Below are positions 36,140-51,987 of a stretch of 64,000 bases of DNA, piece after piece. The notes under the pieces are model-generated. The model saw nothing but the letters and a program-made list of their open reading frames with translations, was not told the DNA's origin and did not search any database. A program made the translations under genes and the position numbers. This DNA comes from Solirubrobacter soli DSM 22325 (lineage in GTDB: Bacteria > Actinomycetota > Thermoleophilia > Solirubrobacterales > Solirubrobacteraceae): NCBI RefSeq assembly GCF_000423665.1, contig NZ_KE384069.1, positions 609,588 through 673,587 of the forward strand, in the 5' to 3' direction. Position 1 is the stretch's first letter; each line of letters opens with the position of its first letter.

Positions 36140-36862
36140 TCAGCGAACGGTGACGCGGAGCGTGCGGGGCTTGGACTCGTTGCCCGCCACGTCGACCGCG
36201 ACGAGCGTGATCGTGTACTTGCCCGCCTTCAGGCCGCGCGCCGTGAGGGAGAGCGTGCCCTTCCCCGTCACCGCGTAGGTCTTGAAGATCTTCTTCCCGC
36301 GCGAGAACACGACGCCGGTGACGGCGTCCTCGGAGACCTTGAAGCGCACCTTCGCGCCGCGGGTCGCGCGCTTGGCCGACAGCGCCGACAGGGTGGGCTT
36401 GGTCGTGTCCGTCGCCACCGCCGTCTCGACCGGGACATCCGCGGCGACATCGTTGGTGAACGCCTGCTGGCTGAGCGGGACCGGCGTCGGCGTCGGGGTC
36501 GCCACGGGCGTCTTTGACACCGTGACCGACCCGAGCATCGTGTCCTTGTGGACCGAGCAGTAGAAGTTGTACGTCCCCTCGTTCTCGAAGACGTACGACG
36601 CGTCGGGCGCCGGCACGCCGAGCGGGGAGAAGAAGCCCGTCCAGTTGGCATCGGCCGGCGTCGACCCGTTCGCCGCGACGTGGTGCGCCTGCACCGTGCC
36701 CGCGAACGTCCACGTCACCTTCTGGCCCGGCTCGATCGACACGTTCGGCTTGTCCCACACCAGCGCGTCGGTGCCGTGGATGACCTGGTCCTCGGCCAGG
36801 GCGGGGGAGGCGAAGGCGCCGCACGCCGCCAGCGCCGCGATGCCACAGATCGAGAGCCTCAC
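36140..36862 (-). CDS. Secreted cupredoxin with C-terminal Ig-like module
   Basis: 240 residues. GTG at 36862 overlaps the stop of the multicopper oxidase gene (GTGA). A signal peptide ends at ALA. The plastocyanin-like domain (about 25-125) keeps type 1 copper ligands: His in QAHHVAANG, Cys and His in FYCSVHKDTM, plus the Met. A Pro-Thr linker follows, then an Ig-like module with the pattern GAKVRFKVSEDA...DVAGNESKPRTLRVTV. It is expected to carry one electron outside the cell to or from the multicopper oxidase encoded just upstream. Last gene of a three-gene coupled operon. Confidence 0.9.
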   Translation of the reverse strand: MRLSICGIAALAACGAFASPALAEDQVIHGTDALVWDKPNVSIEPGQKVTWTFAGTVQAHHVAANGSTPADANWTGFFSPLGVPAPDASYVFENEGTYNFYCSVHKDTMLGSVTVSKTPVATPTPTPVPLSQQAFTNDVAADVPVETAVATDTTKPTLSALSAKRATRGAKVRFKVSEDAVTGVVFSRGKKIFKTYAVTGKGTLSLTARGLKAGKYTITLVAVDVAGNESKPRTLRVTVR

Positions 36863-38346
36863 TTGGACACCTCCAGCTGCAGCATCATCGCCTTGTCGCC
36901 GTGCTCGAGCGAGTGGCAGTGGAACACGTAGCGGCCCTCGTACGGGATGAACCACGGCTTGACCGTGACGGTCTCGCCCGGCAACACGCCCACGGTGTCC
37001 TTCCAGCCCCGCTCGCCGGGGTGGATGACGCCCGAGGAGCGCTCGACGACGCGGTAGAGCATCCCGTGCAGGTGCATCGGGTGCACGCGGTTGGACGGGT
37101 TGTGCCACTGCCACAGCTCGGTCGTCCCGAGCCGCGGCGCCACGTCGATCCGGTTGGGATCGAAGCCGCGGTTGGCGATCTGCCACTGCACGCCGCCCTG
37201 GGTGAGCAGCGAGAGATCCCACTTCCGCGTCGCGTTGGGCTCGGGCAGCTTCTCGAGCGTGCGCATGCGCCCGCGCGGGAGCCGGAACTCCTCGACGCCG
37301 CCGCCGTCGACGACGTCGAAGCGCATCACCGCGCGCGTGCCCGGCGACTCGCCGGCGGTGTTGGTGAGCACGATCTCCGAGCCCGGCTTGAAGCTGCGGA
37401 AGTCGAGCAGGACCTCGATGCGCTCGGCCGGGTGCAGCGGGAAGTCCGTGCGCGCGACCGGCGACTCGAGCAGGCCGCCGTCGGAGGCGACCTGCAACAT
37501 CTGGCGGCCGTTGCCCAGCTTGAGGTTGTACGAGCGAGCGTTGGACGCGTTGAGGAAGCGCAGCCGGTAGATCCGCCGCTGGACGGCCAGGCGCGGCGAG
37601 ATCGCCCCGTTGACCAGGATCGTGTCGCCGCGGAAGCCGAGGTCGACGTTCTCCGCGTAGCGGAACGAGCCGTCCTTGTTGAACGCGTGGTCGGCGATCA
37701 CCAGCGGGATGTCGTACTCGCCCGAAGGCAGCCCGAGCTCCGCCTCGCGGTCATCCGCGAGCAGGTACGTGCCGACCAGGCCGTAGTAGAGCGTCCGCGC
37801 GGTGCGGCCGTGCGCGTGGTCGTGGTACCAGAGGAACGCCGCGTCCTGCTTGTTCGGGTACGTGTAGTTGAAGCTCTGGCCCGGGTTGATGACGTCCATG
37901 GGGTGGCCGTCGTGGGCCGCCGGCACATAACCGCCGTGGAGGTGCACGTTGCTGTCGAACGACAGGTTGTTGTGCTGGCGGACGATCGACGGCCGGTCCT
38001 TGGACGCGTAGATCGTCGGCCCGGGGTAGATCCCCTCGTAGCCGTAGATCGGGGTCTCGAACCCGGTCAGGATCTCCGCCAGGCCCTCCTTGATGTCGAC
38101 GTCATAGACATCGACACCGTTCTTGGTCGAGACCGGAGCGAGCGCCGGAGCGATCGGCAGGTCGCGCTGGAACGGGGTGAACAGCGACTGCGTCTGCGCG
38201 CGCCGGGCCGCCGAGGTGACGACCTTCGGACCCTTGAGCGACGACGTCGTGCCGAACGTGCAGACGAGCGCGATCGAGTACGAGCCGTTGCGCAGGAAGT
38301 CCCGCCGCGACCAGGCGTCGTGCGGAGGACGGAAAGCACCCTTCAT
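36859..38346 (-). CDS. Multicopper oxidase, Tat-exported (CotA/bilirubin-oxidase-like)
   Basis: 495 residues. SRRDFLRNGS near the N-terminus is a twin-arginine signal, so the enzyme is probably folded and copper-loaded before export. All four copper-binding clusters are present in order: HLHGG, WYHDHAHG, HPMHLHG and HCHSLEHGDKAMM, the last giving the type 1 Cys, His and axial Met. The three-cupredoxin-domain layout is that of CotA/CueO-type laccases, which oxidise phenols, metals or electron-carrier proteins and reduce oxygen to water. It overlaps cupredoxin genes by 4 bp on both sides, which points to dedicated electron donors. Confidence 0.93.
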   Translation of the reverse strand: MKGAFRPPHDAWSRRDFLRNGSYSIALVCTFGTTSSLKGPKVVTSAARRAQTQSLFTPFQRDLPIAPALAPVSTKNGVDVYDVDIKEGLAEILTGFETPIYGYEGIYPGPTIYASKDRPSIVRQHNNLSFDSNVHLHGGYVPAAHDGHPMDVINPGQSFNYTYPNKQDAAFLWYHDHAHGRTARTLYYGLVGTYLLADDREAELGLPSGEYDIPLVIADHAFNKDGSFRYAENVDLGFRGDTILVNGAISPRLAVQRRIYRLRFLNASNARSYNLKLGNGRQMLQVASDGGLLESPVARTDFPLHPAERIEVLLDFRSFKPGSEIVLTNTAGESPGTRAVMRFDVVDGGGVEEFRLPRGRMRTLEKLPEPNATRKWDLSLLTQGGVQWQIANRGFDPNRIDVAPRLGTTELWQWHNPSNRVHPMHLHGMLYRVVERSSGVIHPGERGWKDTVGVLPGETVTVKPWFIPYEGRYVFHCHSLEHGDKAMMLQLEVSK

Positions 38347-39176
38347 CGCGTCACCCGCACTTTCGCGCTCTGGACAGTGGCCTTGTTGCCGCGCGCGTCA
38401 CGCGCTTCGACCTGGACCGTGTAGCGCGCCCGGACGAGCTTGGAGCTGCGCACGGTGAAGGCGCGAGAGCCGGCGCGCGCGGAGAGCGTGAGCGTCCGGA
38501 TGGCCTTGGACCCGCGCTTGAAGCGGATCGTGACCGTCGAGTTCTCCGACAGCGCGAACGAGACCCGCGCGCCATGCGCGACGGCCTTGAGCTTGAGCTT
38601 GGAGATCACCGGCGGAGTGACATCGGCGCGCGAGGTGCCGAGCGGGGCCGGCGTGGTGCGGTCGGCGCCGACCGGGGTGGGGGTGGCCGTCACGGTGGGC
38701 GTGGCGGTCGCCGTCGCGGTCGCGGTCGCGGTGGCCGTCGCGGTGGCCGTGGCCGTCGCGGTGGCGGTCGCCGTCGCGGTGGGCGTCGGCGTCACCGGGT
38801 TACCGGTGACGGTAACCGTACCGGTCATCGCCGCGTGCACCTGGCAGATGAAGTTGTACGACCCCGGCTGCGTGAACGTGTAGGAGCCGGTACCCGAGGA
38901 AGCGATCGGGATGATCACTTTCTCGTTCCATTCAGGGTCAGGGCCTTCCTTGCCGACGGCGTTGTGGAACTGACCGTCGCCGCCGTTGACGTCCCAGGTC
39001 ACGGTGTCGCCCGTATTGACCGACACCGCGGGCTTGTCCCAGGCGGTGCCGCTGGCCTTGATCGTGACGTCAGCACGCGGTTCCGCCGCCGCGGCGACGC
39101 TCACGCCACCGACCACGGCGCCCACGGCCAGCAGACCCATTACGGCACGCAACGCGCCGCCCCTTCGCTGAACCAT
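38343..39176 (-). CDS. Secreted cupredoxin with Ala-Thr repeat linker
   Basis: 277 residues. ATG at 39176 follows AGGAGGAGAAC. A signal peptide ends AAA. The plastocyanin-like domain (about 35-130) has ligands in GQFHNAVG and FICQVHAAMTG. Then comes a linker made almost entirely of Ala-Thr pairs (about 35 residues), and a C-terminal Ig-like module like that of the third gene (GARVSFALSENS...EARDARGNKATV). The linker probably projects the copper domain away from the wall. First gene of the operon, divergent from the DUF1080 protein across 150 bp. Confidence 0.9.
   Translation of the reverse strand: MVQRRGGALRAVMGLLAVGAVVGGVSVAAAAEPRADVTIKASGTAWDKPAVSVNTGDTVTWDVNGGDGQFHNAVGKEGPDPEWNEKVIIPIASSGTGSYTFTQPGSYNFICQVHAAMTGTVTVTGNPVTPTPTATATATATATATATATATATATATATPTVTATPTPVGADRTTPAPLGTSRADVTPPVISKLKLKAVAHGARVSFALSENSTVTIRFKRGSKAIRTLTLSARAGSRAFTVRSSKLVRARYTVQVEARDARGNKATVQSAKVRVTR
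38682..38790. repeat. Hexanucleotide repeat encoding (Ala-Thr)n
   Basis: About 18 tandem GGYSGY hexamers encode the Ala-Thr linker of the cupredoxin. Synonymous variation between units (GTC, GTG, GCC) suggests selection for the dipeptide rather than recent slippage alone. Confidence 0.85.
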
Positions 39177-39326: not shown

Positions 39327-42300
39327 ATGCGGTCCTTGAGGACGTCGCTGGTGGTTGGGGTGCTGTTGCTGTGCTCGATGGCGGTGGGCACGGCACAGGG
39401 TGCGCCCATGCGCGAGAGCGCGTTGGACGTGGGGTCGTGCGGCGTCGACGAGTTCACCGGCACGACGCTCGACACGGCGCGCTGGAAGACGATCGTCCGG
39501 CCGAACGCGGCCGGCTACGGCGTCGCGGACGGGGTGCTGAAGCTGCGCGCGCTGACCGGCGACATGTACGGCGATCGAGCCACTGCGCAGAATCTGATTC
39601 TCCAGGACACACCCAATGGTGCGTGGACTGCGACTACTAAGCTCGACTCGAAGGCCTTCACCCGCGAGGGTCAGCAGGCGGGTCTGATCGTCTACAAGGA
39701 CGACTCGACCTTCAGCAAGTTCACGGTCATCAACAAGGGTGCCCAGGGACGCTGGTTCGAACACATCTTCACCGCCGACAAGGTCGCGCGGCTGGAGATC
39801 GGGACCGACACGACGCCGCCGCTGAACGACTCGTTCCCGGCGCTCGTGTACATCCGTGTCATCTCCGACGGACAGACGATCCGCGGCGAGTACTCCGGCG
39901 ATGGCATCACGTGGTCGCCGATCGGCCGCCCGGCGAAGATCGGCTCGGGCGTCAAGCTCGGCCTCTACGCGGCGGACAACGCGCAGGACGGACCTGAGGT
40001 CCCGTTCGAGTTCGTCTCGCTCAACGCCCAGAGCGACGAGTTCGCGGGCACCGAGATCGAGAAGTGCCGCTGGTCGCAGATCGTGCGCGAGGCCGCGACC
40101 GGCTACCGCGTGCAGAACGGCGCGCTCGAGATCGACACCGGCGCCGACGAGATCGACGGCACCGCCCCGAACCTGATCGGCCAGCCCGTCCCGGCCGGCA
40201 ACTGGCAGGTCGAGAGCAAGATCGACCTGACCACCAACGCCGAGGGCCAGCAGGCCGGCCTGCTCCTCTACAAGGATTCGAACAACTGGATCAAGACGGT
40301 CCTGGTCGACAAGAACGCGACGAGCCAGATCGAGTTCGTCCGCGTCAAGGACGGCGGCTACCAGCTCGACGCGCCGTTCAAGGTCGACGTGCCCAAGAAC
40401 CTGACGAGCTTCTACCTGCGGATGCGCGCGAGCGGCGGCACCGCCAACGCGCAGTACTCGACCAACGGCACGACCTGGACCGACGTCGGCAAGTCGCGTG
40501 ACATCTCCGACCTGGGCGCCGGCTACCTCGGCCCGGTCGCGCTGCGCGGCGACGCGGTCAACCCGGTCACGGCGAAGTTCGACTACGTCCGCGTCGCCCC
40601 GTCGCCGGTCGAGCCCTGCACCGCGCCCGGCGCGCCGGAGTCCGGCTACGAGCGCCTGTGGAACGGCGTCGACATGGCCGCGACGACGCAGGCCGGCCCC
40701 GGCGGCTTCGACATCGTCAACGACGGTGGCACCGAAGGCTGCCGCCTGGTCAGCCGCGGCGGCCTGGGCCTGCTGTGGTTCAACGCCAAGACCTACGACA
40801 ACTTCGTCCTGCGCACGCAGTGGAAGTCGTCCAAGGACACCGACAACTCCGGCATCTTCGTCCGCTTCCCGAACCCGGGCACCGACCCCAACGTCGCGAT
40901 CAACCAGGGTCACGAGATCCAGATCCGCGAGGGCGTCGCCGGTGACGGCGAGGACCAGAAGACCGGCTCGATCTACAACTTCAAGCGCGAGACGGCGCGT
41001 GCCGCCAAGCCCGCGGGTCAGTGGAACGACTACGAGATCCGCTACGAGTCAGGCGTCTACACGATCACGCTCAACGGCACGGTCGTGAACACGTTCACGA
41101 ACACGACGACGCAGGCGCGCTCGGCCGGCTACATCGGCCTCCAGAACCACGGCGCCAGCGACGAGGTGTCGTTCCGCAACGTGCGGATCCAGCCGCTGGT
41201 AACCGCCGCGACGAACATCTTCACGACGATCGGCATCACGACCAACTCGACGCGGGCGAACGGGCAGATCTACCCGCCCACGAACCCGTACTCGCTGCCG
41301 GCCGAGCAGATGCCGCCGTCGAACACGGTCGGCGTGGCGCCGAGCGACTCCGCCGACGACGTCCCGCTGCGGATGCCCGACACGACCGGCACGAAGCCGA
41401 ACTTCGCGGCGATGCGCGGACAGGTGTTCACGCTGCGCGCGGGCGACCAGAAGGCCTACTCGAAGCTGCACTTCTTCGGGACGACCTCCGACGGCGGCCC
41501 CGCGGGCGGCAACTTCACGCTGCGCTACTCGGACAACACCACCGCCACCGTGAACATCCAGTTCCCGGACTGGTGCGGCAACGGCACGGCGACGGCGCAT
41601 TACGCGATCGGCAAGCTCAACGGCCGCTACCGCGCCAACAGCACGGGTGACACCGCGGGCTGTGGCATCTACCACTACCCGATCGACAACCCGCAGCCGA
41701 CCAAGACGCTCGTCGGGGTGACGCTGCCCAACGCCACGACCGGCACGACCGGCGCCAACACGCAGGCCTACCTGATGGCGCTCACGCTCGAGACCACCGG
41801 GCCGGTCTACACGACGCCCGACCTCTCGGGCCAGGTCGCCTTCCCGGACGACAACAAGGCGCCGACGACGACCGCCACGCTCGACCCCGCCGCGCCGAAC
41901 GGCAACGACGGCTGGTACAAGGGCGCGGTCCGCGTGACGCTGAACGGCGTCGACGAGCAGGGCGGCTCCGGCGTCGAGCAGATCATGTACCGGATCGACG
42001 GCGGCGCGCCGCAGAGCTACACGGGCGCGTTCAACTACACGACCGAGGGCTCGCACACGCTCGAGTACCGCTCGATCGACGGCGCCGGGAACGCGGAGAC
42101 GTACAAGCCGCTGACGCTGAAGGTCGACACGCAGGCGCCGACGACGAGCACGCAGGTCGTTCCCGGCCTGCCGCTCGGCGGCGACGGCTGGTACGACAGC
42201 GCCGTCACGGTGCGCCTGAGCGCCGTCGACGGTGCCGGCTCGGGGATCGCCGCGGAGGGCACCGAGTACAGCCTCGACGGCGGCGACTGGACGGCGTATG

Positions 42301-43115
42301 ACGAGCCGGTCGAGATCGCCGACGCGGGCGTGCACACGCTGCAGTACCGCTCGGGTGACGTCGCCGGCAACGCCGAGGTCGCCAAGTCGTTGACGCTGAA
42401 GGTCGACGCGACGGCGCCGTCGACGGCGATCCGCATCAACGGCGAGGAGCCGGTCGAGGAGTACACGTCGGCGGTGCGGGTGGCGTTCACCCGCTCTGAC
42501 GCGGACGGCTCCGGCGCGGTCAGGACCGAGTACCGGGTCGACGGCGGCGACTGGGAGGACTACGACGAGACGGGCGCCTTCGACGTCGAGGGCAACCGCG
42601 GCCACAAGGTCGAGTTCCGCTCGATCGACGTCGCCGGCAACGTCGAGAACTTCAAGTCGCTGATCTTCGTCATCCGGCCGCCGGTCATCCCGGCCGCCAC
42701 GCCGACGCCCACGCCCGCACCGATCGTGGTCCCGCAGGCGGTGCCGGCGCCGGCGCCCAAGCCGTATGCCTCGCTCGAGGACGTCAGCTCCAAGCTCTCG
42801 ACGGTCGCCGCATTGCGCGGCGGCAAGTTCGCGGTGCACGTGAGCTGCCAGGCCGTGCGCAGCGGGACGCTGAGCCTGACCGTCTCCAAGTCGGTCGCGC
42901 GCAAGCTCAAGCTCAAGAGCACCACGCTCGCCAAGGGGTCGCTGCGCTGCGGCGATGAGGGCCGGGCGACGCTGACGCTCAAGCCGAGCTCGACGGTCAA
43001 GGCCGCGCTGGCCAAGGCCAAGGGCTCGATCACCGCGACGCTCACGCTGCGCCTGAACGGTGCGGATGGGGTCGTGCGAGACACGCAGTCCGTGACGTTG
43101 AAGGGGAAGTCGTGA
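39327..43115 (+). CDS. Giant secreted protein: DUF1349-like x2, DUF1080, CBM-like, Ig-like repeats
   Basis: 1,262 residues. ATG at 39327 follows GGAGGG and starts a signal peptide ending at AQG. Two DUF1349-like concanavalin-fold domains (about 30-225 and 232-430; DEFTGTTLD and DEFAGTEIE starts). Then a DUF1080/3-keto-disaccharide hydrolase domain (about 438-625; LWNGVDMA, SGIFVRFPNPG, GHEIQI, GSIYNF, YIGLQNHG). Next a beta-sandwich with four Cys that resembles a carbohydrate-binding module (630-828), three OmpL47/Ig-like repeats (842-1118), a Pro linker and a C-terminal module (VAKLKL...SLRCG type). DUF1080 proteins act on 3-keto-glycosides, so this is probably an extracellular glycan-processing or binding enzyme. 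Ends four bases into the next gene's upstream GTG. Confidence 0.88.
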   Translation: MRSLRTSLVVGVLLLCSMAVGTAQGAPMRESALDVGSCGVDEFTGTTLDTARWKTIVRPNAAGYGVADGVLKLRALTGDMYGDRATAQNLILQDTPNGAWTATTKLDSKAFTREGQQAGLIVYKDDSTFSKFTVINKGAQGRWFEHIFTADKVARLEIGTDTTPPLNDSFPALVYIRVISDGQTIRGEYSGDGITWSPIGRPAKIGSGVKLGLYAADNAQDGPEVPFEFVSLNAQSDEFAGTEIEKCRWSQIVREAATGYRVQNGALEIDTGADEIDGTAPNLIGQPVPAGNWQVESKIDLTTNAEGQQAGLLLYKDSNNWIKTVLVDKNATSQIEFVRVKDGGYQLDAPFKVDVPKNLTSFYLRMRASGGTANAQYSTNGTTWTDVGKSRDISDLGAGYLGPVALRGDAVNPVTAKFDYVRVAPSPVEPCTAPGAPESGYERLWNGVDMAATTQAGPGGFDIVNDGGTEGCRLVSRGGLGLLWFNAKTYDNFVLRTQWKSSKDTDNSGIFVRFPNPGTDPNVAINQGHEIQIREGVAGDGEDQKTGSIYNFKRETARAAKPAGQWNDYEIRYESGVYTITLNGTVVNTFTNTTTQARSAGYIGLQNHGASDEVSFRNVRIQPLVTAATNIFTTIGITTNSTRANGQIYPPTNPYSLPAEQMPPSNTVGVAPSDSADDVPLRMPDTTGTKPNFAAMRGQVFTLRAGDQKAYSKLHFFGTTSDGGPAGGNFTLRYSDNTTATVNIQFPDWCGNGTATAHYAIGKLNGRYRANSTGDTAGCGIYHYPIDNPQPTKTLVGVTLPNATTGTTGANTQAYLMALTLETTGPVYTTPDLSGQVAFPDDNKAPTTTATLDPAAPNGNDGWYKGAVRVTLNGVDEQGGSGVEQIMYRIDGGAPQSYTGAFNYTTEGSHTLEYRSIDGAGNAETYKPLTLKVDTQAPTTSTQVVPGLPLGGDGWYDSAVTVRLSAVDGAGSGIAAEGTEYSLDGGDWTAYDEPVEIADAGVHTLQYRSGDVAGNAEVAKSLTLKVDATAPSTAIRINGEEPVEEYTSAVRVAFTRSDADGSGAVRTEYRVDGGDWEDYDETGAFDVEGNRGHKVEFRSIDVAGNVENFKSLIFVIRPPVIPAATPTPTPAPIVVPQAVPAPAPKPYASLEDVSSKLSTVAALRGGKFAVHVSCQAVRSGTLSLTVSKSVARKLKLKSTTLAKGSLRCGDEGRATLTLKPSSTVKAALAKAKGSITATLTLRLNGADGVVRDTQSVTLKGKS

Positions 43116-43132
43116 AGTCCAGGGGGAGGAAC

Positions 43133-46100
43133 ATGAAGAACACGCTGCGAGCGCTGCTCGCGAGCGCGGTACTGCTGTGCGCCTTCGCGGCCACCGCGCA
43201 GGCTCAGAGCGTCAAGGTGCTCGTCTTCCACGGGCCGCCCGATGCCACCACCACCGCCGGCGTGAACGCGATCAAGGACCTCGGGACAGCCGGCGGCTTC
43301 GGCGTCGACGAGGCCGCGGCGGCGACGGACCTGAACCCGGCCAACCTCGACAAGTACCGCGCCCTGGTGTTCCTCAACACCGCGGGCGACCTGCTCAACG
43401 CCGAGCAGGAGAGCGCCGTCCAGCGCTTCGTCGAGCAGGGCAACGGGTTCCTCGGCATCGGCTCGGCCGCCCAGGGCGAGTCCGGCTCCTTCTTCGACGG
43501 CCTGATCGGCGCCCGCCCGACCGCGGGCAGCCCGACGGCCACGACTGCCAAGACGGTCGCCGTCGGTGACCGCGTCCATCCGGCCACGCGCGACCTCCCC
43601 GCCCTGTGGGATCGCTCCGACGTCTGGTACCAGTGGACCGCCCGCGTCACCGGCACCGTGCACGTCGTCGCGCGCTATCGCACGGTCGGCGCGCCTTCCG
43701 GCGATGCCACCAAGGACGGGACGACCGACAACGACACCCCGATCTCGTGGTGCCGCGACTACCGCGGCGGCCGCTCCTTCTACACCGGCATGGGCCGCAC
43801 GGCCGCGGCCTACGGCGAGGCCGACTTCAAGAAGCACCTCGCCGGCGCGCTGGCGTGGACCTCGGGCCTGACCCGCGGCAACTGCAAGGCCACGATCAAC
43901 AGCAACTACAAGGCCAAGCAGATCATGAGCGCCGGCGCCGAGTCGACCGGTCTCACGACCGCCGGCGAGTCGCACGGCCTGACGGTCGCCAACAACGGCT
44001 GGGTCATGTACATCGGCCGCGGCGACTGCCGCACCGACGCCGAGCGCGGCGCGCTCGTCAACCTGCCGTCGCTGGGCCGCATCCTGACCCACGACAACCC
44101 GAACGTCGGCATCGGCTGCGGCACGGTGCACATCTACGACCCGAAGGCCGACACCGGCGCGATCAACAGCGGCGTGACGCTGGCCGGCAAGCTCGCCGTC
44201 TACGGCGACGGCGGCCAGGGCGGGGAGAAGACCTCCGACGCCGACCACAAGATGGAGTACGGCCTGCTCGGCATCGCCGCCGCGCCGGACTTCGCCACCA
44301 CGGGTCACATCTACCTGCAGTACTTCCCGACGTTCAACCCGAACACGAAGCCGGCGGGCCTCCCGGTCGAGCGCCGGATCTCGAAGATGTCGCGCCCGCG
44401 CATCTCGCGCTTCACGATCAACCGCACCACCAAGAAGCTCGACCTCGACTCCGAGGTCAAGATCTTCGAGTACGACGCCCAGATCTACTCCTGCTGCCAC
44501 GTCGGCGGCGGCATGGGCTTCGACTCCAAGGGCAACCTGTACGTGACGACGGGTGACACCAACTCGTCGCAGGGCTCCAACGGCTACTCGGGCAACAACC
44601 CGTCCGCCAAGTGCCCGATCGGCGACAACAGCGTGCCGGTCAGCGCCAACTGCGGTACCGCGAACTACTCCTACCAGGACGCGCGAAGGACCGCGGGCAA
44701 CACCAACGACTACAACGGCAAGATGCTGCGCTTCCATCCGGATCCGACGATCCCGGACGGCGCGAAGCCCACGGTCGGCGAGGGCACCACGTACACGATC
44801 CCGGACGCCGCGGCCCCGAACGGCCCGAACCTGTTCGACGGCACCGAGGGCGGCGGCGGCAAGACCAAGCGCGAGATCTACGCGATGGGTCTGCGTAACC
44901 CGAGCCGCCTGTCGATCGACCCCAAGACCGACGTCCCGTACACGGCGTGGGTCGGTCCGGACGCCGGCGCCCCGAGCGTCACGCAGGGTCCGTCGACGTA
45001 CGAGAACGCCGCGCAGATCACGCGCGCCGGCAACTATGGCTGGCCGTACTGCATGGGCAACAAGCAGGCTTACCGCGACCGTCCGGTCGACGCGAACCTG
45101 CGCACCGACAGCCCCTCCGGCTACGTGCCGGGCGGCCCGGCGACGGGTGGCACCGAGGGCTGGTACGACTGCGACAACCTGCGCAACGACTCGCCGAACA
45201 ACACCGGCCTGGTCGTGTTCCCGCACCAGACCGGCACCGGCGCCGACGCCGGCAAGGTCCGCGGCAACAACGTCTGGTACTCGCGCGGCAACCCGGGCTC
45301 CAACAACGGCTGCCCGAGCTTCCCGCGCCCGCGTGGCGCCAACGCGGCGCCCGACTACAGCGCCACGCCGACCCAACTGTGCCCGTACGCGCAGGACAAC
45401 GGCATGACGATCATGGACGGCCCGGTCTACCGCTACGACGCGGATGCGGCCGACCAGTCCAAGCGCTGGCCCGCCTATTGGGACGGTCGCTGGTTCCTGC
45501 ACAACAACGGCGGTGCCTCGATCAAGCACGGCCTGCTGCTCGACCAGAGCACGGCGGCCACCGGCGGCCAGCCGATCTACGCCGACTCGCTGCGCGACAC
45601 GCTGGCGTGGAACGGGTCCTACATGGACTCCAAGTTCGGCACCGACGGCGCGCTCTACGTCCAGACCTACGACGGCTTCTTCCGCGCGGGTCCGAACGTG
45701 GGCATCTACCGCTACGACTACGTCGGCGGCTCGTCGACCCCGAACGCGGCGCCGCGCGCCGTGCCGATCGGCGACTTCAGCGTCCGCTTCTCGGTCGGCA
45801 GCTCCGGCGGCGTGTCCTACAAGTGGGACTTCGGTGACGGGCAGAGCTCGACCGATGCCAACCCGACGCACAAGTACGCCGAGGCCAAGCGCTACACGGC
45901 CAAGCTGACCGTCACCTACGGCGACGGCGGCACCGACGCCAACACGATCGACGTCGACGTCCTCGCGACGGCCGACGAGATCGCGCCGACCACGACCGCG
46001 ACGTTCAACCCGGCGACCCCGGGCAACGGCGGCACGTACACGCGGCCGGTCACGATCACGCTCACCGCGGCCGACAATGCCGGCGGCTCGGGCGTGGACA

Positions 46101-48547
46101 TCACCGAGTACCGCGTCAACGGCGGCGAGTACCAGATCTACGCCGGTCCGGTCACCCGCAGCCAGCCGGGCGACTACACGGTCGACTACCGCTCGGTCGA
46201 CAAGACCGGCAACGTCGAGACGGCCAAGACCGTCACGTTCAAGATCGCGATCCCGGAGAACTGCCCGACGAACCTCAATGACGAGTTCGCCGGACCGACC
46301 CTGGATCCGAAGTGGCAGATCCTGCGCGGCGATGCCAACTACCGCGTCTTCGACAGCGGCCGCCTGAGGATCACCGTCCGCAACGGCGACATGATCGGCG
46401 CCACCGCGACGGCGCAGAACGTGCTCCTGCAGCCGGCCCCGGCCGGCAGCTGGCAGGCGACGACGAAGCTGGACGTCTCGACGCTCACCACGTCGGGCGA
46501 CCAGGCCGGGTTCATCCTCTGGCAGCGCGAGAACCCGAACACGTTCGCGAAGATCACCTACATCTCCAAGGGCACCACCCAGCAGTACGAGTGGGTGGCG
46601 ACGCGCAACGGCGCCTCGCAGATCTCGACCGGGCCGTCGATCTCGGCGCGTCCGACCGACGTCTACCTGCGCCTGAGCTCCAACGGCTCCGGCACCTACA
46701 TCGCCGAGGGCTCCGTCGACGGCGAGAACTGGCAGCAGATCTCGTCGCCGATCACCGACCTCGGCGACCCGTCGACCCTGAAGGTCGGCCTGAAGGTCTC
46801 CAACACGCAGAACTCCACCACCCGCAACGCCGGCTTCGACTACTTCCGTGTCGACTGCTCGGACAAGATCGCTCCGGTGACCACGGCCAAGCTGGACAAG
46901 GCCACGCCGGACGGCAAGCTGGGCTGGTACTCGACCGCTCCCAAGGTCGAGCTGACGGCCAACGACGGCGTCGGCGAGGGCGTGGACAAGATCACCTACA
47001 AGGTCGACGGCGGCGCCGCTCAGACCTACGAGGGCCCGTTCACCGTCGACGGTGAGGGCGAGCACGTCATCGAGTACTTCGCCTCCGACAAGGCGGAGAA
47101 CGTCGAGACGGCGAAGACGGTCGCGTTCCGCGTCGATGCCAATGCCCCGGAGACCACGGGCACGGGCGAGATCGACGAGGACAAGGGCGAGGCGACGGTC
47201 ACCCTCGACGTCGACGACGGTGAGAAGGGCTCCGGCTCGGTGCTCACCGAGTACCGCGTCGACGGCGGACCGTGGAAGGTCTACGAGTCCAAGGCCGAGC
47301 AGATCTTCGACGGCTCCGCCGCGTCGATGGCGCAGTGGAAGCAGGCCGGCGCGGGCAACTTCAACCTCGCGACGGACGCGTCGGGCAGCTACCTCGACCC
47401 GGTCGGCGGTCTGGGCATGCTCTGGTACCCGAAGCCCTACGGCGACTACAAGCTGTCGCTCCAGTGGCGTGAGGGCCAGGGCACGAACGGGTTCTCCAAC
47501 GGCGGCGTGTTCGTCCGCTTCCCGAACCCGGAGCAGAACCCGCGGACCGACGAGTGCGCCAAGGTCGGCTCGGCCGCGACCGACAACGCCTGGGTGGCCA
47601 TCTACTGCGGCCACGAGCTGCAGATCTACGACGGCAACACGGGCGAGACGCGCAAGACCGGCTCGATCTACACGTTCGACAACAACGACATCACCCAGAT
47701 CGGCCCGGCCAAGCCGCGCGGCGAGTGGGAGGACTACGTCATCACCGCCAAGGGCCAGCACATCACGATCGCCCGCAACGGCACCGTGATCAAGGAGTTC
47801 GACAACACGCCCGGCAAGCAGTCCGACCGCTCGGGCGACCCGTCGACGACGCTGCGCCAGTTCGCGCAGGGCTACATCGGCCTGCAGAACCACGGCGGCG
47901 CCGACCGCATCCAGTACCGCAACATCCGGATCGAGGACCTCTCGGCCGGTGCCCGCGGTGTGGTGGAGGCCAAGCCGTTCACGATCACGGGCCGGGGCCC
48001 GCACACGATCGAGGCCCGCTCGACCGACGCGGCCGGCCATCAGGAGGCCAAGAAGACGTTCTCGTTCGAGATCGGGTCCGTGACGCCTCCCGGCGACACC
48101 GGCAACGGTGACAACGGCAACAACAACCAGCCGCCGATCGTGCTGGTCCCGCAGGTCGTCAGCCCGATCATCCCGGCGATGGCCCAGTCGACCGCGACGG
48201 CGACGTTCGGGACGATCACCTCGAAGATCACCCGCGCGACGTTCGCCAAGAAGGGTCTCGCTGTGCCGGTCACCTGCACCGGCGCGATGGACGGCACGGC
48301 CAAGCTGACGGTCACCTCGGCGGTGGCCAAGCGGCTGAAGCTGAGCCGGACGACGCTGGCCTCGGCGGATGCCACGTGCTACGGCCCGCACTCGATCAAG
48401 GTGGCGCTCAAGCCGTCCTCCTCGCTGGCGAAGGCGCTGGCCCGCAAGGGCGGTCCGAAGAGCGTGAAGCTCACGCTCAGCGTCGAGATGCACGTCTTCG
48501 GCAAGGCGCCGCAGACGCTCAAGAAGTCGATCACGCTCAAGCGATAG
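43133..48547 (+). CDS. Giant secreted ThuA / sugar-dehydrogenase propeller / PKD / DUF1349 / DUF1080 protein
   Basis: 1,804 residues. The ATG at 43133 follows GGGGGAGGAAC; a GTG at 43112 overlapping the previous stop is the alternative. After a signal peptide (AQAQ) come: ThuA-like domain (about 26-255; VLVFHGPP, HPATRDLP, FYTGMGRT), glucose/sorbosone-dehydrogenase propeller (273-861; HVGGGMGFDSKGNLYV, MGLRNPSRLSIDP, NYGWPYCMG), PKD (YKWDFGDGQ, 873-942), OmpL47/Ig repeats, a DUF1349-like domain (1043-1242), a DUF1080 domain (about 1385-1610) inserted inside the last Ig repeat, and a C-terminal module. Oxidation at the propeller and cleavage or binding at DUF1080/ThuA in one chain suggests oxidative glycan breakdown at the cell surface. 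Confidence 0.9.
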   Translation: MKNTLRALLASAVLLCAFAATAQAQSVKVLVFHGPPDATTTAGVNAIKDLGTAGGFGVDEAAAATDLNPANLDKYRALVFLNTAGDLLNAEQESAVQRFVEQGNGFLGIGSAAQGESGSFFDGLIGARPTAGSPTATTAKTVAVGDRVHPATRDLPALWDRSDVWYQWTARVTGTVHVVARYRTVGAPSGDATKDGTTDNDTPISWCRDYRGGRSFYTGMGRTAAAYGEADFKKHLAGALAWTSGLTRGNCKATINSNYKAKQIMSAGAESTGLTTAGESHGLTVANNGWVMYIGRGDCRTDAERGALVNLPSLGRILTHDNPNVGIGCGTVHIYDPKADTGAINSGVTLAGKLAVYGDGGQGGEKTSDADHKMEYGLLGIAAAPDFATTGHIYLQYFPTFNPNTKPAGLPVERRISKMSRPRISRFTINRTTKKLDLDSEVKIFEYDAQIYSCCHVGGGMGFDSKGNLYVTTGDTNSSQGSNGYSGNNPSAKCPIGDNSVPVSANCGTANYSYQDARRTAGNTNDYNGKMLRFHPDPTIPDGAKPTVGEGTTYTIPDAAAPNGPNLFDGTEGGGGKTKREIYAMGLRNPSRLSIDPKTDVPYTAWVGPDAGAPSVTQGPSTYENAAQITRAGNYGWPYCMGNKQAYRDRPVDANLRTDSPSGYVPGGPATGGTEGWYDCDNLRNDSPNNTGLVVFPHQTGTGADAGKVRGNNVWYSRGNPGSNNGCPSFPRPRGANAAPDYSATPTQLCPYAQDNGMTIMDGPVYRYDADAADQSKRWPAYWDGRWFLHNNGGASIKHGLLLDQSTAATGGQPIYADSLRDTLAWNGSYMDSKFGTDGALYVQTYDGFFRAGPNVGIYRYDYVGGSSTPNAAPRAVPIGDFSVRFSVGSSGGVSYKWDFGDGQSSTDANPTHKYAEAKRYTAKLTVTYGDGGTDANTIDVDVLATADEIAPTTTATFNPATPGNGGTYTRPVTITLTAADNAGGSGVDITEYRVNGGEYQIYAGPVTRSQPGDYTVDYRSVDKTGNVETAKTVTFKIAIPENCPTNLNDEFAGPTLDPKWQILRGDANYRVFDSGRLRITVRNGDMIGATATAQNVLLQPAPAGSWQATTKLDVSTLTTSGDQAGFILWQRENPNTFAKITYISKGTTQQYEWVATRNGASQISTGPSISARPTDVYLRLSSNGSGTYIAEGSVDGENWQQISSPITDLGDPSTLKVGLKVSNTQNSTTRNAGFDYFRVDCSDKIAPVTTAKLDKATPDGKLGWYSTAPKVELTANDGVGEGVDKITYKVDGGAAQTYEGPFTVDGEGEHVIEYFASDKAENVETAKTVAFRVDANAPETTGTGEIDEDKGEATVTLDVDDGEKGSGSVLTEYRVDGGPWKVYESKAEQIFDGSAASMAQWKQAGAGNFNLATDASGSYLDPVGGLGMLWYPKPYGDYKLSLQWREGQGTNGFSNGGVFVRFPNPEQNPRTDECAKVGSAATDNAWVAIYCGHELQIYDGNTGETRKTGSIYTFDNNDITQIGPAKPRGEWEDYVITAKGQHITIARNGTVIKEFDNTPGKQSDRSGDPSTTLRQFAQGYIGLQNHGGADRIQYRNIRIEDLSAGARGVVEAKPFTITGRGPHTIEARSTDAAGHQEAKKTFSFEIGSVTPPGDTGNGDNGNNNQPPIVLVPQVVSPIIPAMAQSTATATFGTITSKITRATFAKKGLAVPVTCTGAMDGTAKLTVTSAVAKRLKLSRTTLASADATCYGPHSIKVALKPSSSLAKALARKGGPKSVKLTLSVEMHVFGKAPQTLKKSITLKR

Positions 48548-49272: not shown

Positions 49273-49697
49273 AGGGTTCCGCGGGGCGCGAGCCAGACGC
49301 TCTCGAACGTGAGGTCCGTGCGCTCGGCGATCAGGTCGTAGTCGTGGTCGTAGTGCAGGACGCCGAGCCCGTGGCGGTCGGCGAGCGCCGCGACCAGCAG
49401 GTCGACCGGCGGGAGGCGATGGTGGCCGACGCGGGCGAGCTGGCGCTGCGCGTCGAGCGCCCGCTGCTCGACGGCGTCGTCGATCGCGAAGCGGGGGAGG
49501 GCGAGCAGCTCGTCCAAGAGCGCGTCGTGGTCGCGCGCGTCGCGGGCGGAGTAGCCGGCCTCGAGCAGGAACGGCAGGCAGGTCGCGATCTGGCCGGCCT
49601 CGAGGGCGTCGGCGAGCTCGCTCGAGCGCGAGTGGGGGAGGCCCGGCGCGGCGAGGCGCACCCAGGCCGAGTTGTCGAGCAGGAGGGGACCGGTCAT
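49269..49697 (-). CDS. vapC: PIN-domain toxin (VapC-like)
   Basis: 142 residues. PIN-domain ribonuclease with the expected acidic residues: Asp in LLLDNSAWVRL, Glu in FLLEAGYSA, Asp in LPPVDLLVAALA and Asp in HYDHDYDLIAERT. VapC toxins cleave tRNA or rRNA until bound by VapB. The likely antitoxin gene lies 85 bp upstream on the same strand. Length and layout are normal, so it should be active. Confidence 0.9.
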   Translation of the reverse strand: MTGPLLLDNSAWVRLAAPGLPHSRSSELADALEAGQIATCLPFLLEAGYSARDARDHDALLDELLALPRFAIDDAVEQRALDAQRQLARVGHHRLPPVDLLVAALADRHGLGVLHYDHDYDLIAERTDLTFESVWLAPRGTL

Positions 49698-49782
49698 CGC
49701 GGCGCGGCGTGGGCGCGGCGGGCCGCGGCTGCGGCGGGCGGCGCCGTGTCGGCGGCCGATCCAGGCGGGGCGGCGGGCAGCG

Positions 49783-50118
49783 TCACGCGGGACGGGCCCA
49801 GCCCTGGCGGCGCACCTCTTCGGCGGCGGCCGGGTCGAGCGGGAGGTCGCGGCGGCGGATGCGGTCGGCGAGGCGGGCGCGGCGGGAGGCGATCCCCTCG
49901 CGTTCGGCGCGCACGCGGGCGAGCTTCTCCTGGGCGCCGAGGATCAGCAGCTCGGAGAACTCGATCCGTTCGCCTCCCAGCTCGTCGCGCAGCTCATCCA
50001 AGGCCGCGCGGACGGGCGGGGTCTCGGTGATCGCGTGGCGGGGATGCTTCGTCGGGATACGGGTCAGTGTAACACCGGTGTGGCACCGACCGGGAGCGGA
50101 GTCCCGGCCGGTGCGCAC
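49783..50118 (-). CDS. Probable VapB-type antitoxin
   Basis: Up to 111 residues if the GTG at 50118 is used. The likely folded part begins RHAITETPPVRAALDEL and is helical and highly charged, ending in a basic tail (RRRDLPLDPAAAEEVRRQG) that could thread over the PIN domain. The first 20 residues overlap a hairpin that looks like the terminator of the TIM-barrel gene, so the true start may be further in, though no good ATG/GTG is seen. ACACCGGTGT (50072-50081) and TACACT are possible operator and -10. Assigned mainly from position upstream of the PIN gene. Confidence 0.5.
   Translation of the reverse strand: MRTGRDSAPGRCHTGVTLTRIPTKHPRHAITETPPVRAALDELRDELGGERIEFSELLILGAQEKLARVRAEREGIASRRARLADRIRRRDLPLDPAAAEEVRRQGWARPA
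50090..50107 (-). terminator. Hairpin after TIM-barrel gene
   Basis: CCGGGA/TCCCGG with a six-base loop, 18 bases past the stop codon. Weak but in the right place; it lies within the 5' end of the antitoxin reading frame. Confidence 0.4.
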
Positions 50119-50124
50119 GTACCC

Positions 50125-51987
50125 CTACGGAGCGGTGGTGGAGAGGGTGAACGTCAGCGCCTTGCCGTATGTGCCGGAGCGCAGGACGTCGGTGGCGCCG
50201 ATCGCCTGGCGGAAGCCGATCGTCACCGGGTCCTGGTTGACCGGGCCGGTGTACGTCAGCAGGTTCGTCGCGGTGCCGGTCGTCTCGGCCAGCGCAGCGA
50301 ACGCCTGCGTGGGGTTGGTCGCGTTGACCGCGCGGACGTTCAGCGGCGCGGGCAGCGAGAACGTGCCGTTGACCAGGTGGCCGGGGGCGGTCGCGCTCGT
50401 GTCGGTCGCCGAGAGGACGGCGTTGCCGGCGGTCGAGGTCACCGTCGCGGCGACCGCGGTCTCATAGCTCTTCGCCACCGTCGGCTGGAACGTGCCGAAG
50501 CTCCCCGGCTGCGACGGGAGGCTGAGCGCGAGCAGGCTCGGGACGTTCCCGCCCACCGTCGAGATCGCCTCGCCGGTGCTCGTGCCGGCCAGCAGCACGC
50601 GGTCCATCGCGTCGTCCGAGCTCGACGTGAACTGCAGCCGCGCGACCGACGTGTAGTTGGTGCGGGTCGGCTTGAAGCCGACGTTGACCGTGCACGTGCC
50701 GGCCGGCTTGGCCTCGTTCTCCGTGGTCGCCGGGTCGTCGGCGACGCCGGCCGCGAGCGCGCCGCTCGTGCAGTTGTGGCTGACGATCGCGAAGTCGTCG
50801 CGGGTGGTGTTCCCGCCGTCGTCGGCGTTGGCCGCGAGCGCGACCGCGGTGATCGTCAGCGGCGCGTCACCGTCGTTGGTCACGAGGACCGGGACCTGGT
50901 TGGCCGCCGCCGCGGTCCCCGCCGCCACCGACGGGAACTGGACCGGCGCCGCCTGCAGCACGCCCACGGGCGCGCCCTTCATCGCCAGCGCGCTGTTGGC
51001 GGTGTTCGTGAACGGGTTGAAGTTCGTCGGCCCGCCCAGCGCGACCGGGTCCCGCTCGGCGAAGTAGTACTTCACGCGGTTCTTGGCGGCGGCGAACATC
51101 GGGGCGAAGTTGATCTCGCCCTGGCCGAGCTCACGCTGGTCGTTGTTGCCGCACGACGTGCGCGCGTTCACAAGATCCTTTACGTGAAAGGACACGACGC
51201 GGCCGGGGAACTTGTTCATCAGCCGCAGCACCTCGGCCTCGCCCTGCGCCCGGTTGCCGGGCTCGCCGGCGGCGCCGCAGACCGCCCAGCCGATGTCGAT
51301 CTGGGCGACGACCCAGCGCGGGTCGGTGCGCTCCATCACGATCTCCCACGCGGACTTCAGCACGCCGTTGTCGACGTGGCGCGGCACCCACTCCGGCTGG
51401 TGGTTGTGGAAGTAGGCCGGCCCGAGCCCCGCCTCGACCGAGCGCTTTCCGAGCCGGTTCAGGACCTGCGCGGTGTTGAGCGTCGCCGCGTACGTGCTGA
51501 AGGCGGCGTTGCCGCCGGGTAGGCCGGACTCGCCCACGTGATCCTGACCGAGGATCTTCGACGCCAGGATCTGGTTCTCCCAGTTGGCCTCGGTCAGGTT
51601 GCCGTGGCGGCCCGGGAAGCGGATGCCGTACTTGTCTCCGAGCGCCCGCAGCGCCTGCAGGCCGGCGACGTTGAGCGCCGTCGCGGGGTTCGTGCCCGGG
51701 AACAGCGCCGAGTTGTAGTTGTAGAGCTCGACGTCCTTGATCCCCCGCGACTGCAGGAACTGGAAGACGCGCTCGACGCGGCCGTCCTGCGTGGTCGGGG
51801 CGGGTGGGTTCGGGTCCCCGCCGCCGTTGGAGATGTAGCCGCTGAAGTTGTAGAGCTGGATGCCGCTCTGCCCGACCGGCGCGCCCTCGCCGAGGGACGC
51901 GGGACGCTGCGCCTGGGCGGCGCCGGAGCATGTCAACAACGCACCGGCAGCCGCGAACGCGACGCCGGCTTTGGCCAGACCCTTCAA
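50125..51987 (-). CDS. Secreted sugar-isomerase/epimerase-type TIM barrel with ASH domain and C-terminal module
   Basis: About 620 residues. TTG at 51987 was chosen: GGAGGAGAGGGG precedes it and the product begins with a signal peptide ending AQA; a GTG 18 bases upstream would lie in the ribosome binding site. The xylose-isomerase-like/AP-endonuclease-2 barrel (about 40-330) shows YFHNHQPEW, QIDIGWA, FHVKD and GQGEINF, the metal-site pattern of sugar epimerases and 3-keto-sugar hydratases/dehydratases. An ASH/choice-of-anchor-D-like Ig domain follows (about 345-470). The last 140 residues are the same terminal module as on the S15 peptidases, with an extra loop, ending LSTTAP. A secreted member of this usually cytoplasmic family; likely acts on keto-sugars outside the cell. 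Confidence 0.88.
   Translation of the reverse strand: MKGLAKAGVAFAAAGALLTCSGAAQAQRPASLGEGAPVGQSGIQLYNFSGYISNGGGDPNPPAPTTQDGRVERVFQFLQSRGIKDVELYNYNSALFPGTNPATALNVAGLQALRALGDKYGIRFPGRHGNLTEANWENQILASKILGQDHVGESGLPGGNAAFSTYAATLNTAQVLNRLGKRSVEAGLGPAYFHNHQPEWVPRHVDNGVLKSAWEIVMERTDPRWVVAQIDIGWAVCGAAGEPGNRAQGEAEVLRLMNKFPGRVVSFHVKDLVNARTSCGNNDQRELGQGEINFAPMFAAAKNRVKYYFAERDPVALGGPTNFNPFTNTANSALAMKGAPVGVLQAAPVQFPSVAAGTAAAANQVPVLVTNDGDAPLTITAVALAANADDGGNTTRDDFAIVSHNCTSGALAAGVADDPATTENEAKPAGTCTVNVGFKPTRTNYTSVARLQFTSSSDDAMDRVLLAGTSTGEAISTVGGNVPSLLALSLPSQPGSFGTFQPTVAKSYETAVAATVTSTAGNAVLSATDTSATAPGHLVNGTFSLPAPLNVRAVNATNPTQAFAALAETTGTATNLLTYTGPVNQDPVTIGFRQAIGATDVLRSGTYGKALTFTLSTTAP

What the first reader, a model, noticed from the sequence alone, without database searches (positions are those of the whole stretch)
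36140..51987. Candidate extracellular oxidative (3-keto-glycoside) glycan breakdown locus
Within 16 kb sit a coupled cupredoxin-multicopper oxidase-cupredoxin operon, a DUF1080 protein, a ThuA plus sugar-dehydrogenase propeller plus DUF1080 megaprotein, an SDR and a secreted sugar-epimerase-type TIM barrel. Known: ThuA and DUF1080 domains occur in 3-keto-disaccharide metabolism, and AP-endonuclease-2-like TIM barrels take part in keto-sugar processing; these are usually separate periplasmic or cytoplasmic enzymes. Here dehydrogenase-type and keto-glycoside-type domains are joined in one secreted chain, with copper proteins next door as a possible electron sink to oxygen. The whole scheme, including C3 oxidation and the electron route, is inference.
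Basis: partly seen in the sequence, partly recalled or inferred. Interest (0 to 1): 0.8.

Follow-up and report, generated by a model that had tools for sequence, protein, structure and literature searches.

The report
Copper-linked extracellular keto-sugar enzyme cluster
A soil bacterium carries giant secreted proteins that join several sugar-processing enzyme types in one chain, and copper enzymes that could pass electrons to oxygen keep turning up beside or inside these proteins in related bacteria, which hints at an oxygen-driven way of taking sugars apart outside the cell that still has to be proven.

Summary
In detail: all named domains are present. The core (cupredoxin–multicopper oxidase–cupredoxin, divergent from two giant secreted proteins) keeps its arrangement in 5 of 6 other Solirubrobacter genomes. 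SDR and TIM barrel are not next door there; but in all 7 genomes another giant protein joins ThuA–propeller–DUF1080–cupredoxin in one chain (8 of 8 copies), with the TIM barrel fused in front in 5 of 8. All 20 close copies of the oxidase in the genus lie within 6.4 kb of a ThuA–propeller gene; more distant oxidases do not. The TIM barrel keeps every metal ligand and the catalytic His of a characterised 3-keto-glycoside eliminase (AtOGE). Against the scheme: the propeller has the PQQ-dehydrogenase fold, His and Arg-Asn, but lost the Arg-x-Arg site, and PqqC is missing in 6 of 7 genus genomes and in 33 of 43 tested carriers elsewhere. ThuA–propeller proteins without copper genes are common in Actinobacteria. 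So a keto-glycoside-type module tied to copper proteins is well supported; which enzyme oxidises the sugar, and whether electrons reach O2 through copper, is open. New variant of known parts.

The parts
36140..36862 (-). Secreted cupredoxin A (240 aa) with C-terminal Ig-like domain; overlaps the oxidase gene by 4 bases
   Evidence: PF00127 1.9e-6 and Big_13 8.5e-7; start by reading; ligands C-x2-H-x3-M visible
36859..38346 (-). Tat-type multicopper oxidase, bilirubin-oxidase/CotA-like, copper motifs intact
   Evidence: nearest solved 8z59 bilirubin oxidase 9.2e-83, CotA 2wsd 2.8e-77; motifs HLHG, WYHDH, HPMHLHG, HCHSLEHGDKAM
38343..39176 (-). Secreted cupredoxin B with Thr/Pro-rich linker and Ig-like C-terminus
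   Evidence: PF00127 1.1e-8; ligands C-x2-H-x2-M visible; start by reading
39327..43115 (+). Giant secreted protein 1 (1262 aa): two ConA-like (GH43_C2) domains, DUF1080, conserved unnamed domain (about 41214-41858), OmpL47-type repeats, C-terminal domain
   Evidence: only the unnamed domain, repeats and C-terminus are kept in all 5 orthologues
40647..41192 (+). DUF1080 (3keto-disac_hyd) domain of giant protein 1
   Evidence: PF06439 6.1e-35, 121.4 bits against a cut-off of 26.8
43112..48547 (+). Giant secreted protein 2 (1804 or 1811 aa): ThuA - GSDH propeller - PKD - OmpL47 - ConA-like - OmpL47 - DUF1080 - C-terminal domain
   Evidence: full-length orthologues 53-66% identical in 5 of 6 genus relatives
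43214..43861 (+). ThuA domain
   Evidence: PF06283 8.2e-46; fold Z 23.3 to 4jqs
43898..45727 (+). GSDH-type six-bladed propeller with Cys-Cys-His, GxRN and lost Arg-x-Arg
   Evidence: fold Z 31.2 to 3a9g, 30.6 to 2ism, 28.8 to PQQ-bound 3das; residues
47294..47935 (+). DUF1080 domain of giant protein 2
   Evidence: PF06439 2.2e-31, 109.8 bits
48559..49272 (+). SDR oxidoreductase, no visible signal peptide; not conserved in the block
   Evidence: no SDR hit in the 5 orthologous loci
50125..52005 (-). Secreted xylose-isomerase-like TIM barrel (626 aa) with AtOGE-type metal site (H200, H202, D237, H274, E317) plus a genus-wide C-terminal domain

Best explanation
The cluster encodes an extracellular system for oxidised (3-keto) glycosides coupled to a copper relay. 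Proposed order of events: the GSDH propeller (or another oxidant) makes a keto-glycoside; the TIM barrel removes the aglycone or next sugar by Mn-dependent beta-elimination as AtOGE does; DUF1080 and ThuA domains hydrolyse or hydrate the keto-sugar product; ConA-like, PKD and OmpL47 domains hold substrate or cell surface; electrons from the oxidation pass to the cupredoxins, then to the multicopper oxidase and O2. SHOWN here: domain content, gene linkage, in-chain fusion of TIM, ThuA, propeller, DUF1080 and cupredoxin in paralogues, intact copper motifs, intact eliminase metal site, PQQ-dehydrogenase fold of the propeller. INFERRED: substrate, C3 position, identity of the oxidant and its cofactor (scavenged PQQ at best), direction of electron flow, and the chemistry of ThuA and DUF1080 in these proteins.
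For: (1) Fusion: another giant protein has ThuA, propeller, DUF1080 and cupredoxin in one chain in 8 of 8 copies over all 7 genus genomes (G001 and G006 near-identical), with the TIM barrel in front in 5 of 8 (Pfam check of two copies). (2) Linkage: 20 oxidases at least 52% identical in 7 genomes; 20 of 20 within 6.4 kb of a ThuA-propeller ORF and with cupredoxin genes beside them; the more distant near-full-length oxidases (43%, 32%, 29%) have no ThuA in the 3 loci fetched (L150, L156, L157; a fourth, the G006 twin of L157, was not fetched). (3) In the window's genome 3 of 4 oxidases lie within 10 kb of a ThuA domain against 0.22 expected (p=0.0003), cupredoxin loci 6 of 20 against 1.11 (p=0.0008), by 4,000 random placements (a fifth, partial 31% match was left out). 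(4) Class-wide draw of 399 genomes: 7 have the ThuA-propeller (E<=1e-30) and 7 the oxidase (E<=1e-80), 6 in common, five of them Solirubrobacter, the sixth G310 of another family, where the two are adjacent. (5) TIM site: window H200, H202, D237, H274, E317 align with AtOGE H132, H134, D163, H189, E233 (roles from PMC10628242 section 8); the first four identical in 30 of 30 genus and wider relatives, E317 in 29 of 30. (6) Outside the genus a TIM barrel sits within 600 bp on the same strand in 19 of 75 loci; DUF1080 is in 10 of 75 loci, 4 of them in one chain with ThuA-propeller. (7) Copper motifs present in all 20 linked oxidases; 62 of 67 genus cupredoxin domains keep H...C-x2-H...M.
Against: No PqqC in 6 of 7 genus genomes including the window's own; PqqE above cut-off only in the same one genome, G003; PqqC over the cut-off in 10 of 46 carriers of ThuA-propeller genes, i.e. 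missing in 33 of the 43 that are not Solirubrobacter or RSA11. 2ism R316 and R318 (recalled to be the PQQ-contacting Arg-x-Arg of this fold) align with Ser and Met in the window protein; over 88 sequences the first is Arg in 34, the second in none. The same fold includes HHIP (Z 29.6; recalled as non-enzymatic). DUF1080 of giant protein 1 is missing in 4 of 6 loci. In 75 ThuA-propeller loci outside the genus there is no cupredoxin hit and one weak oxidase hit, so copper is not essential to the wider family. At 5 kb only 1 of 4 own-genome oxidases is near ThuA (p=0.11), and DUF1080 loci are not significantly near ThuA at 10 kb (2 of 7, p=0.06). One of two G310 oxidases has no ThuA-propeller on its 8.6-kb contig. 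In the class draw G047 has ThuA-propeller without the oxidase and G015 the reverse. No alternative C3 oxidase is apparent either: PF13618 is above cut-off in 1 of 7 genomes, not in the window's.
Confidence: 0.4

Rival explanations
1. Keto-glycoside cleavage without own oxidation: the TIM barrel, DUF1080 and ThuA domains cleave glycosides already oxidised by other organisms or by unlinked enzymes; the propeller is a binding or non-redox (lactonase/lyase-like) domain, and the copper cassette serves another extracellular oxidation in the same niche.
For: TIM active site intact while the PQQ site is degraded and PQQ synthesis is absent in most carriers tested; outside the genus the same modules occur without copper proteins; other propellers that are not dehydrogenases match at Z about 20 (xylonolactonase, Drp35).
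Against: Cupredoxin is fused in the same chain in 8 of 8 copies and the oxidase is strictly linked; the sGDH-type His, Arg and Asn are kept in 88, 88 and 87 of 88 sequences.
Confidence: 0.27
2. Laccase-type surface chemistry: the oxidase and cupredoxins oxidise phenols or cross-link surface polymers, and the giant ThuA/propeller/DUF1080 chains are carbohydrate-binding scaffolds that bring the oxidase to plant or fungal cell-wall material.
For: Nearest solved relatives of the oxidase are bilirubin oxidase and CotA, enzymes of bulky aromatics (recalled); ConA-like, PKD and OmpL47 domains abound; related Solirubrobacteraceae MAGs carry other, two-domain laccases in a lignin-labelling study (passages of PMC9296663).
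Against: Does not explain the conserved eliminase site of the TIM barrel nor its fusion with the same chains.
Confidence: 0.2
3. Copper-homeostasis operon next to unrelated sugar genes: cupredoxin-oxidase-cupredoxin protects against copper, as CueO does, and the neighbourhood is accidental.
For: CueO-like score of the oxidase (NCBIfam NF008205 270 bits, below its cut-off of 525).
Against: 20 of 20 close oxidases beside ThuA-propeller genes, cassette adjacent to its partner in another family, correlation of oxidase and partner distance matrices r=0.67, 0 of 10,000 permutations as high over 18 loci (relatedness of the loci inflates this).
Confidence: 0.05

Closest known systems
AtOGE and C-glycoside eliminases (Mn-dependent 3-keto-glycoside beta-eliminases; PDB 8bvk)
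   Same: TIM-barrel fold and all five metal/catalytic residues (H132, H134, D163, H189, E233 = window H200, H202, D237, H274, E317)
   Different: Window protein has a signal-like N-terminus and an extra C-terminal region; paralogues are fused to ThuA, propeller, DUF1080 and cupredoxin; activity untested
Solved sugar isomerase/epimerase-like TIM barrels 8tcs, 8tcd, 8tct, 3obe
   Same: Best sequence matches (2.7e-16 for 8tcs with a profile)
   Different: Short single-domain chains; their activity was not read here (recalled as from work on an alternative 3-keto glycan pathway)
PQQ aldose sugar dehydrogenases (3a9g, 2ism, 3das, sGDH 1qbi)
   Same: Fold (Z 27.8-31.2); catalytic-type His, Arg-Asn, GNYGWP
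   Different: Cys-Cys before the His (77 of 88), Arg-x-Arg lost, no PqqC in most carriers tested
DUF1080 3-keto-disaccharide hydrolases (BT2157, CCNA_01705; passages of PMC9007349)
   Same: Pfam family above cut-off
   Different: Here part of a chain of about 1,800 residues; sequence link to solved members is weak (3imm 1.2e-7); another family member is reported as an endo-xanthanase/lichenase (same passages), so the family does not fix the reaction
Actinobacterial ThuA-GSDH secreted proteins (Micromonospora, Nonomuraea, Streptomyces, Nocardioides)
   Same: Same ThuA-propeller core, with an adjacent TIM barrel in 19 of 75 loci or DUF1080 in 10 of 75
   Different: No cupredoxin and no clear oxidase at those 75 loci
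Bilirubin oxidase / CotA / CueO multicopper oxidases
   Same: Family and all copper motifs
   Different: In this genus the close copies sit beside cupredoxin genes and ThuA-propeller genes in 20 of 20 cases

Membership tests
AtOGE-type 3-keto-glycoside beta-eliminase | Metal ligands His, Asp, His, Glu and catalytic His in a TIM barrel | tested here: met
   Alignment to 8bvk against residues named in PMC10628242 section 8; conserved in 29-30 of 30 relatives
AtOGE-type 3-keto-glycoside beta-eliminase | Mn-dependent cleavage of 3-keto-glycosides | not testable with these tools
   needs an enzyme assay
PQQ-dependent sugar dehydrogenase (sGDH/ASD) | Propeller of this fold with the His and Arg-Asn of the family | tested here: met
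   Z 31.2 to 3a9g; H 88/88, R 88/88, N 87/88; roles recalled
PQQ-dependent sugar dehydrogenase (sGDH/ASD) | Arg-x-Arg PQQ contacts (role recalled, not from a call) | tested here: not met
   2ism R316/R318 align to Ser and Met in the window; first Arg kept in 34 of 88, second in 0 of 88
PQQ-dependent sugar dehydrogenase (sGDH/ASD) | PQQ available from own synthesis (helpful, not strictly defining) | tested here: not met
   PqqC in 1 of 7 genus genomes, not in the window's; PqqE above cut-off in 1 of 7
DUF1080 / 3-keto-disaccharide hydrolase | Score above Pfam cut-off | tested here: met
   121.4 and 109.8 bits against 26.8
DUF1080 / 3-keto-disaccharide hydrolase | Catalytic residues | not tested
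   Residues not named in the passages read (PMC9765024); alignment A4 only shows conserved columns
ThuA | Score above cut-off and ThuA fold | tested here: met
   157.3 bits against 33.4; Z 23.3 to 4jqs, 21.2 to 1t0b
Multicopper oxidase | T1, T2 and T3 copper motifs | tested here: met
   HLHG, WYHDH, HPMHLHG, HCHSLEHGDKAM
Cupredoxin | Type-1 ligand set His, Cys, His, Met | tested here: met
   Visible in both window cupredoxins; 62 of 67 genus domains

The most novel reading that the evidence does not exclude
Solirubrobacter secretes a single polypeptide (TIM-ThuA-propeller-DUF1080-cupredoxin, about 2,700-3,000 residues) that oxidises, eliminates and hydrolyses glycosides outside the cell and is wired by its own cupredoxin to a dedicated multicopper oxidase and O2, with a propeller redox site that departs from classical PQQ binding (Cys-Cys next to the His, no Arg-x-Arg): a self-contained aerobic alternative to glycoside hydrolases.
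Probability: 0.22. Interest if true: 0.87.

Novelty: new variant of a known kind. Interest (0 to 1): 0.6.

Why it matters
The 3-keto-glycoside enzymes in the passages read are separate proteins of Gram-negative bacteria, placed in the periplasm in the Caulobacter case (PMC9007349). Here a soil actinobacterial genus has the pathway-type domains fused in secreted chains, with strict linkage to cupredoxins and a multicopper oxidase. If the copper relay is real, it would be an extracellular, aerobic, non-hydrolytic route of glycan breakdown, and it would give a function to the ThuA–propeller proteins that are widespread in Actinobacteria. I found no study of them: no held paper has both ThuA and DUF1080, none has PQQ-dependent, sugar dehydrogenase, cupredoxin and multicopper oxidase together; only open-licence PMC papers are held.

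Tried and rejected
Rejected: the SDR as part of the block (no hit in the 5 orthologous loci). Rejected: the idea that the ThuA–propeller–DUF1080 chain as such is new; ThuA–propeller proteins are common in Actinobacteria and four of 75 non-genus loci also carry DUF1080 in the same chain. Rejected: copper homeostasis as the main reading (linkage). Looked for an FAD-type glucoside-3-dehydrogenase subunit (PF13618): above cut-off in 1 of 7 genus genomes.

Led nowhere: the conserved unnamed domain of giant protein 1 (41214-41858) gave a poor model (mean pLDDT 53.3), so no fold search was run with it. The ThuA–propeller model has mean pLDDT 72.6 with weak loops; residue conclusions rest on sequence alignments, not on model geometry. 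Searches on 3-keto chemistry found the eliminase paper; the title search for the recalled work on an alternative glycan pathway returned only papers that cite such words, so I know that work only by recall. A search for Solirubrobacter with pyrroloquinoline quinone gave three soil-community listings; one for ThuA gave mostly unrelated words.

Full report
WHAT IS THERE. The window lies in a 9.31-Mb assembly (G000:C2:609588-673587). Its genus is Solirubrobacter by inference: same-genus handle G006 has a contig of the same length (1,550,918) as Solirubrobacter sp. CPCC 204708, and two G005 contigs have the lengths of S. taibaiensis records. The copper genes run leftwards as cupredoxin B, oxidase, cupredoxin A with 4-base overlaps; the two giant secreted genes run rightwards from the same intergenic region and also overlap if the GTG at 43112 is used. 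The SDR starts 11 bases after giant protein 2 ends. A PIN-domain gene (49269-49697) and a small ORF separate it from the TIM-barrel gene on the other strand. Secretion was judged by reading only.

CONSERVATION OF THE BLOCK. Full-length orthologues of giant protein 2 (53-66% identity) occur in 5 of 6 other genus genomes. At all five loci cupredoxin B–oxidase–cupredoxin A are divergent from giant protein 1 and giant protein 2 (the second cupredoxin of G005, of G004 complete). In G005 an MMPL-family gene stands between the two giant genes. G001 and G006 are near-identical, so this is four independent loci plus the window. Giant protein 1 keeps its unnamed middle domain, repeats and C-terminus in all, but its DUF1080 and ConA-like domains only in the window and G004. 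Giant protein 2 keeps ThuA, propeller and DUF1080 in all. No SDR and no TIM barrel proper was found next door in the five fetched 20-kb stretches; only the C-terminal region of the TIM protein gave hits there.

FUSIONS. Another giant protein exists in all seven genus genomes (8 copies): ThuA, propeller, DUF1080 and a cupredoxin domain in one chain in 8 of 8; in 5 of 8 the TIM barrel is fused in front. Pfam confirms the own-genome copy (L048: cupredoxin 2.4e-6, DUF1080 2e-25, ThuA 2.2e-50) and an S. taibaiensis copy (L063). The TIM part of L048 is 54% identical to the window TIM protein. This ties the TIM barrel and a copper domain to the same chains by fusion, which is stronger than neighbourhood.

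THE OXIDASE IS TIED TO THUA–PROPELLER GENES. One search lists 27 matches of the window oxidase in 7 genomes; 20 are at least 52% identical. All 20 have a ThuA–propeller ORF within 6.4 kb and cupredoxin genes beside them (the last two G006 copies). Of the other seven matches, four are near full length at 43%, 32% and 29% (twice, the G001/G006 twins) and three are partial; the three near-full-length ones fetched (L150, L156, L157) have no ThuA, an internal control. In the window's genome, with 27 ThuA domains, 30 cupredoxin domains and 4 oxidases (the 43% one included, a partial fifth match left out), 3 of 4 oxidases lie within 10 kb of ThuA (0.22 expected, p=0.0003) and 6 of 20 cupredoxin loci (1.11 expected, p=0.0008) by 4,000 random placements; at 5 kb the oxidase count is 1 of 4 (p=0.11), and DUF1080 loci are 2 of 7 at 10 kb (p=0.06). 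In a draw of 399 genomes of the class, 7 have the ThuA–propeller and 7 the oxidase, 6 in common; five of these are Solirubrobacter. The sixth, G310 (contig lengths of MAG RSA11, another family), has one oxidase adjacent to a ThuA–propeller–DUF1080 gene and one without such a gene on its 8.6-kb contig. G047 has the first without the second, G015 the reverse.

WIDER FAMILY. In the other 75 (nearly all Actinobacteria, two Cohnella), a TIM barrel lies within 600 bp on the same strand in 19 (anywhere in the locus in 23), DUF1080 in 10 (4 in one chain with ThuA–propeller, 6 in a separate ThuA–DUF1080 chain), an oxidase hit once and weakly, a cupredoxin never. So ThuA, propeller, TIM and DUF1080 form a broad actinobacterial association, and the copper part was seen only in Solirubrobacter and RSA11. 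Flanks were at most 9 kb, several contigs are shorter, and the cupredoxin and oxidase profiles were built from the genus, which may miss distant ones.

ACTIVE SITES. TIM barrel: profile alignment to 8bvk (AtOGE) puts window H200, H202, D237, H274, E317 on H132, H134, D163, H189, E233, which the AtOGE paper names as metal ligands and catalytic His (PMC10628242 section 8). The first four are identical in 30 of 30 genus and wider relatives, E317 in 29 of 30. Propeller: the model of ThuA–propeller–PKD (mean pLDDT 72.6, pTM 0.81) matches PQQ aldose sugar dehydrogenases (3a9g Z 31.2, 2ism 30.6, PQQ-bound 3das 28.8) and also HHIP (29.6; recalled as non-enzymatic). The His and the Arg-Asn pair are kept in 88, 88 and 87 of 88 aligned sequences; a Cys-Cys pair precedes the His in 77 of 88. 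The Arg-x-Arg that contacts PQQ in this fold (role recalled) is Ser and Met in the window; over the 88 the first is Arg in 34 and the second in none. PqqC is in 1 of 7 genus genomes and over the cut-off in 10 of 46 carriers. Hence a quinoprotein would need scavenged PQQ and an altered site. Oxidase: nearest solved relatives bilirubin oxidase and CotA, copper motifs found in all 20 linked copies. Cupredoxins: 62 of 67 distinct genus domains keep the ligand set. DUF1080 and ThuA: family membership is clear, catalytic residues were not tested.

READING. The parts, their fusion and their linkage are shown. The best overall reading is an extracellular keto-glycoside system with a copper relay (confidence 0.4). 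The eliminase step is the best supported; the oxidation step is the weakest. The main rival keeps the cleavage and drops the oxidation and the relay.

NOVELTY. Each part belongs to a known family. New, as far as the held papers searched show, are the in-chain union of TIM, ThuA, propeller, DUF1080 and cupredoxin and the strict oxidase linkage. I therefore call it a new variant of a known kind.

Noticed in passing
window 50125-50570 (C-terminus of the TIM protein), also C-termini of 4320-7019, 7032-9719 and 9837-12251, all minus strand: A C-terminal region of about 145 residues is shared by many unrelated secreted proteins; the A2 model gave 58 to 145 matches per genus genome (at most 150 candidates were scored and the list was cut), most of the listed ones being this region. 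No Pfam family was reported for it in the carriers scanned (window 9837-12251 and 50125-52005, L054, L056, L058). It may be a genus-wide surface-attachment domain.
   Followed up: partly
G000, whole genome: 27 ThuA domains and 30 cupredoxin domains in one genome, a large expansion.
   Followed up: partly
window 12998-16519 (-): LamG-Big-GSDH-PKD-LamG protein with a strong GSDH score (2.4e-59) but no ThuA; it also lacks the Arg-x-Arg.
   Followed up: partly
L043, L045, L049, L054 (and by weaker similarity L047): MMPL-family transporter genes sit beside ThuA-propeller or DUF1080 genes at several loci; the window has one at 29636-32041, further away.
   Followed up: no
window 41214-41858: Unnamed domain of giant protein 1 conserved in all five orthologues (50-54% identity) even where DUF1080 is lost; no Pfam match, poor model.
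   Followed up: partly
window 17867-28243: Iron alcohol dehydrogenase, DJ-1/PfpI, aldehyde dehydrogenase, sugar-type ABC transporter and DeoR regulator; relatives of the genes at 17103-21854 also lie near a ThuA-propeller cluster in G003 (L047).
   Followed up: partly
window 49269-49697 (-): PIN-domain gene, possibly a toxin of a toxin-antitoxin pair (PF01850 5e-11).
   Followed up: no
G003: The only one of 7 genus genomes with PqqC and with PqqE over the cut-off, and the only one without a full-length orthologue of giant protein 2.
   Followed up: no
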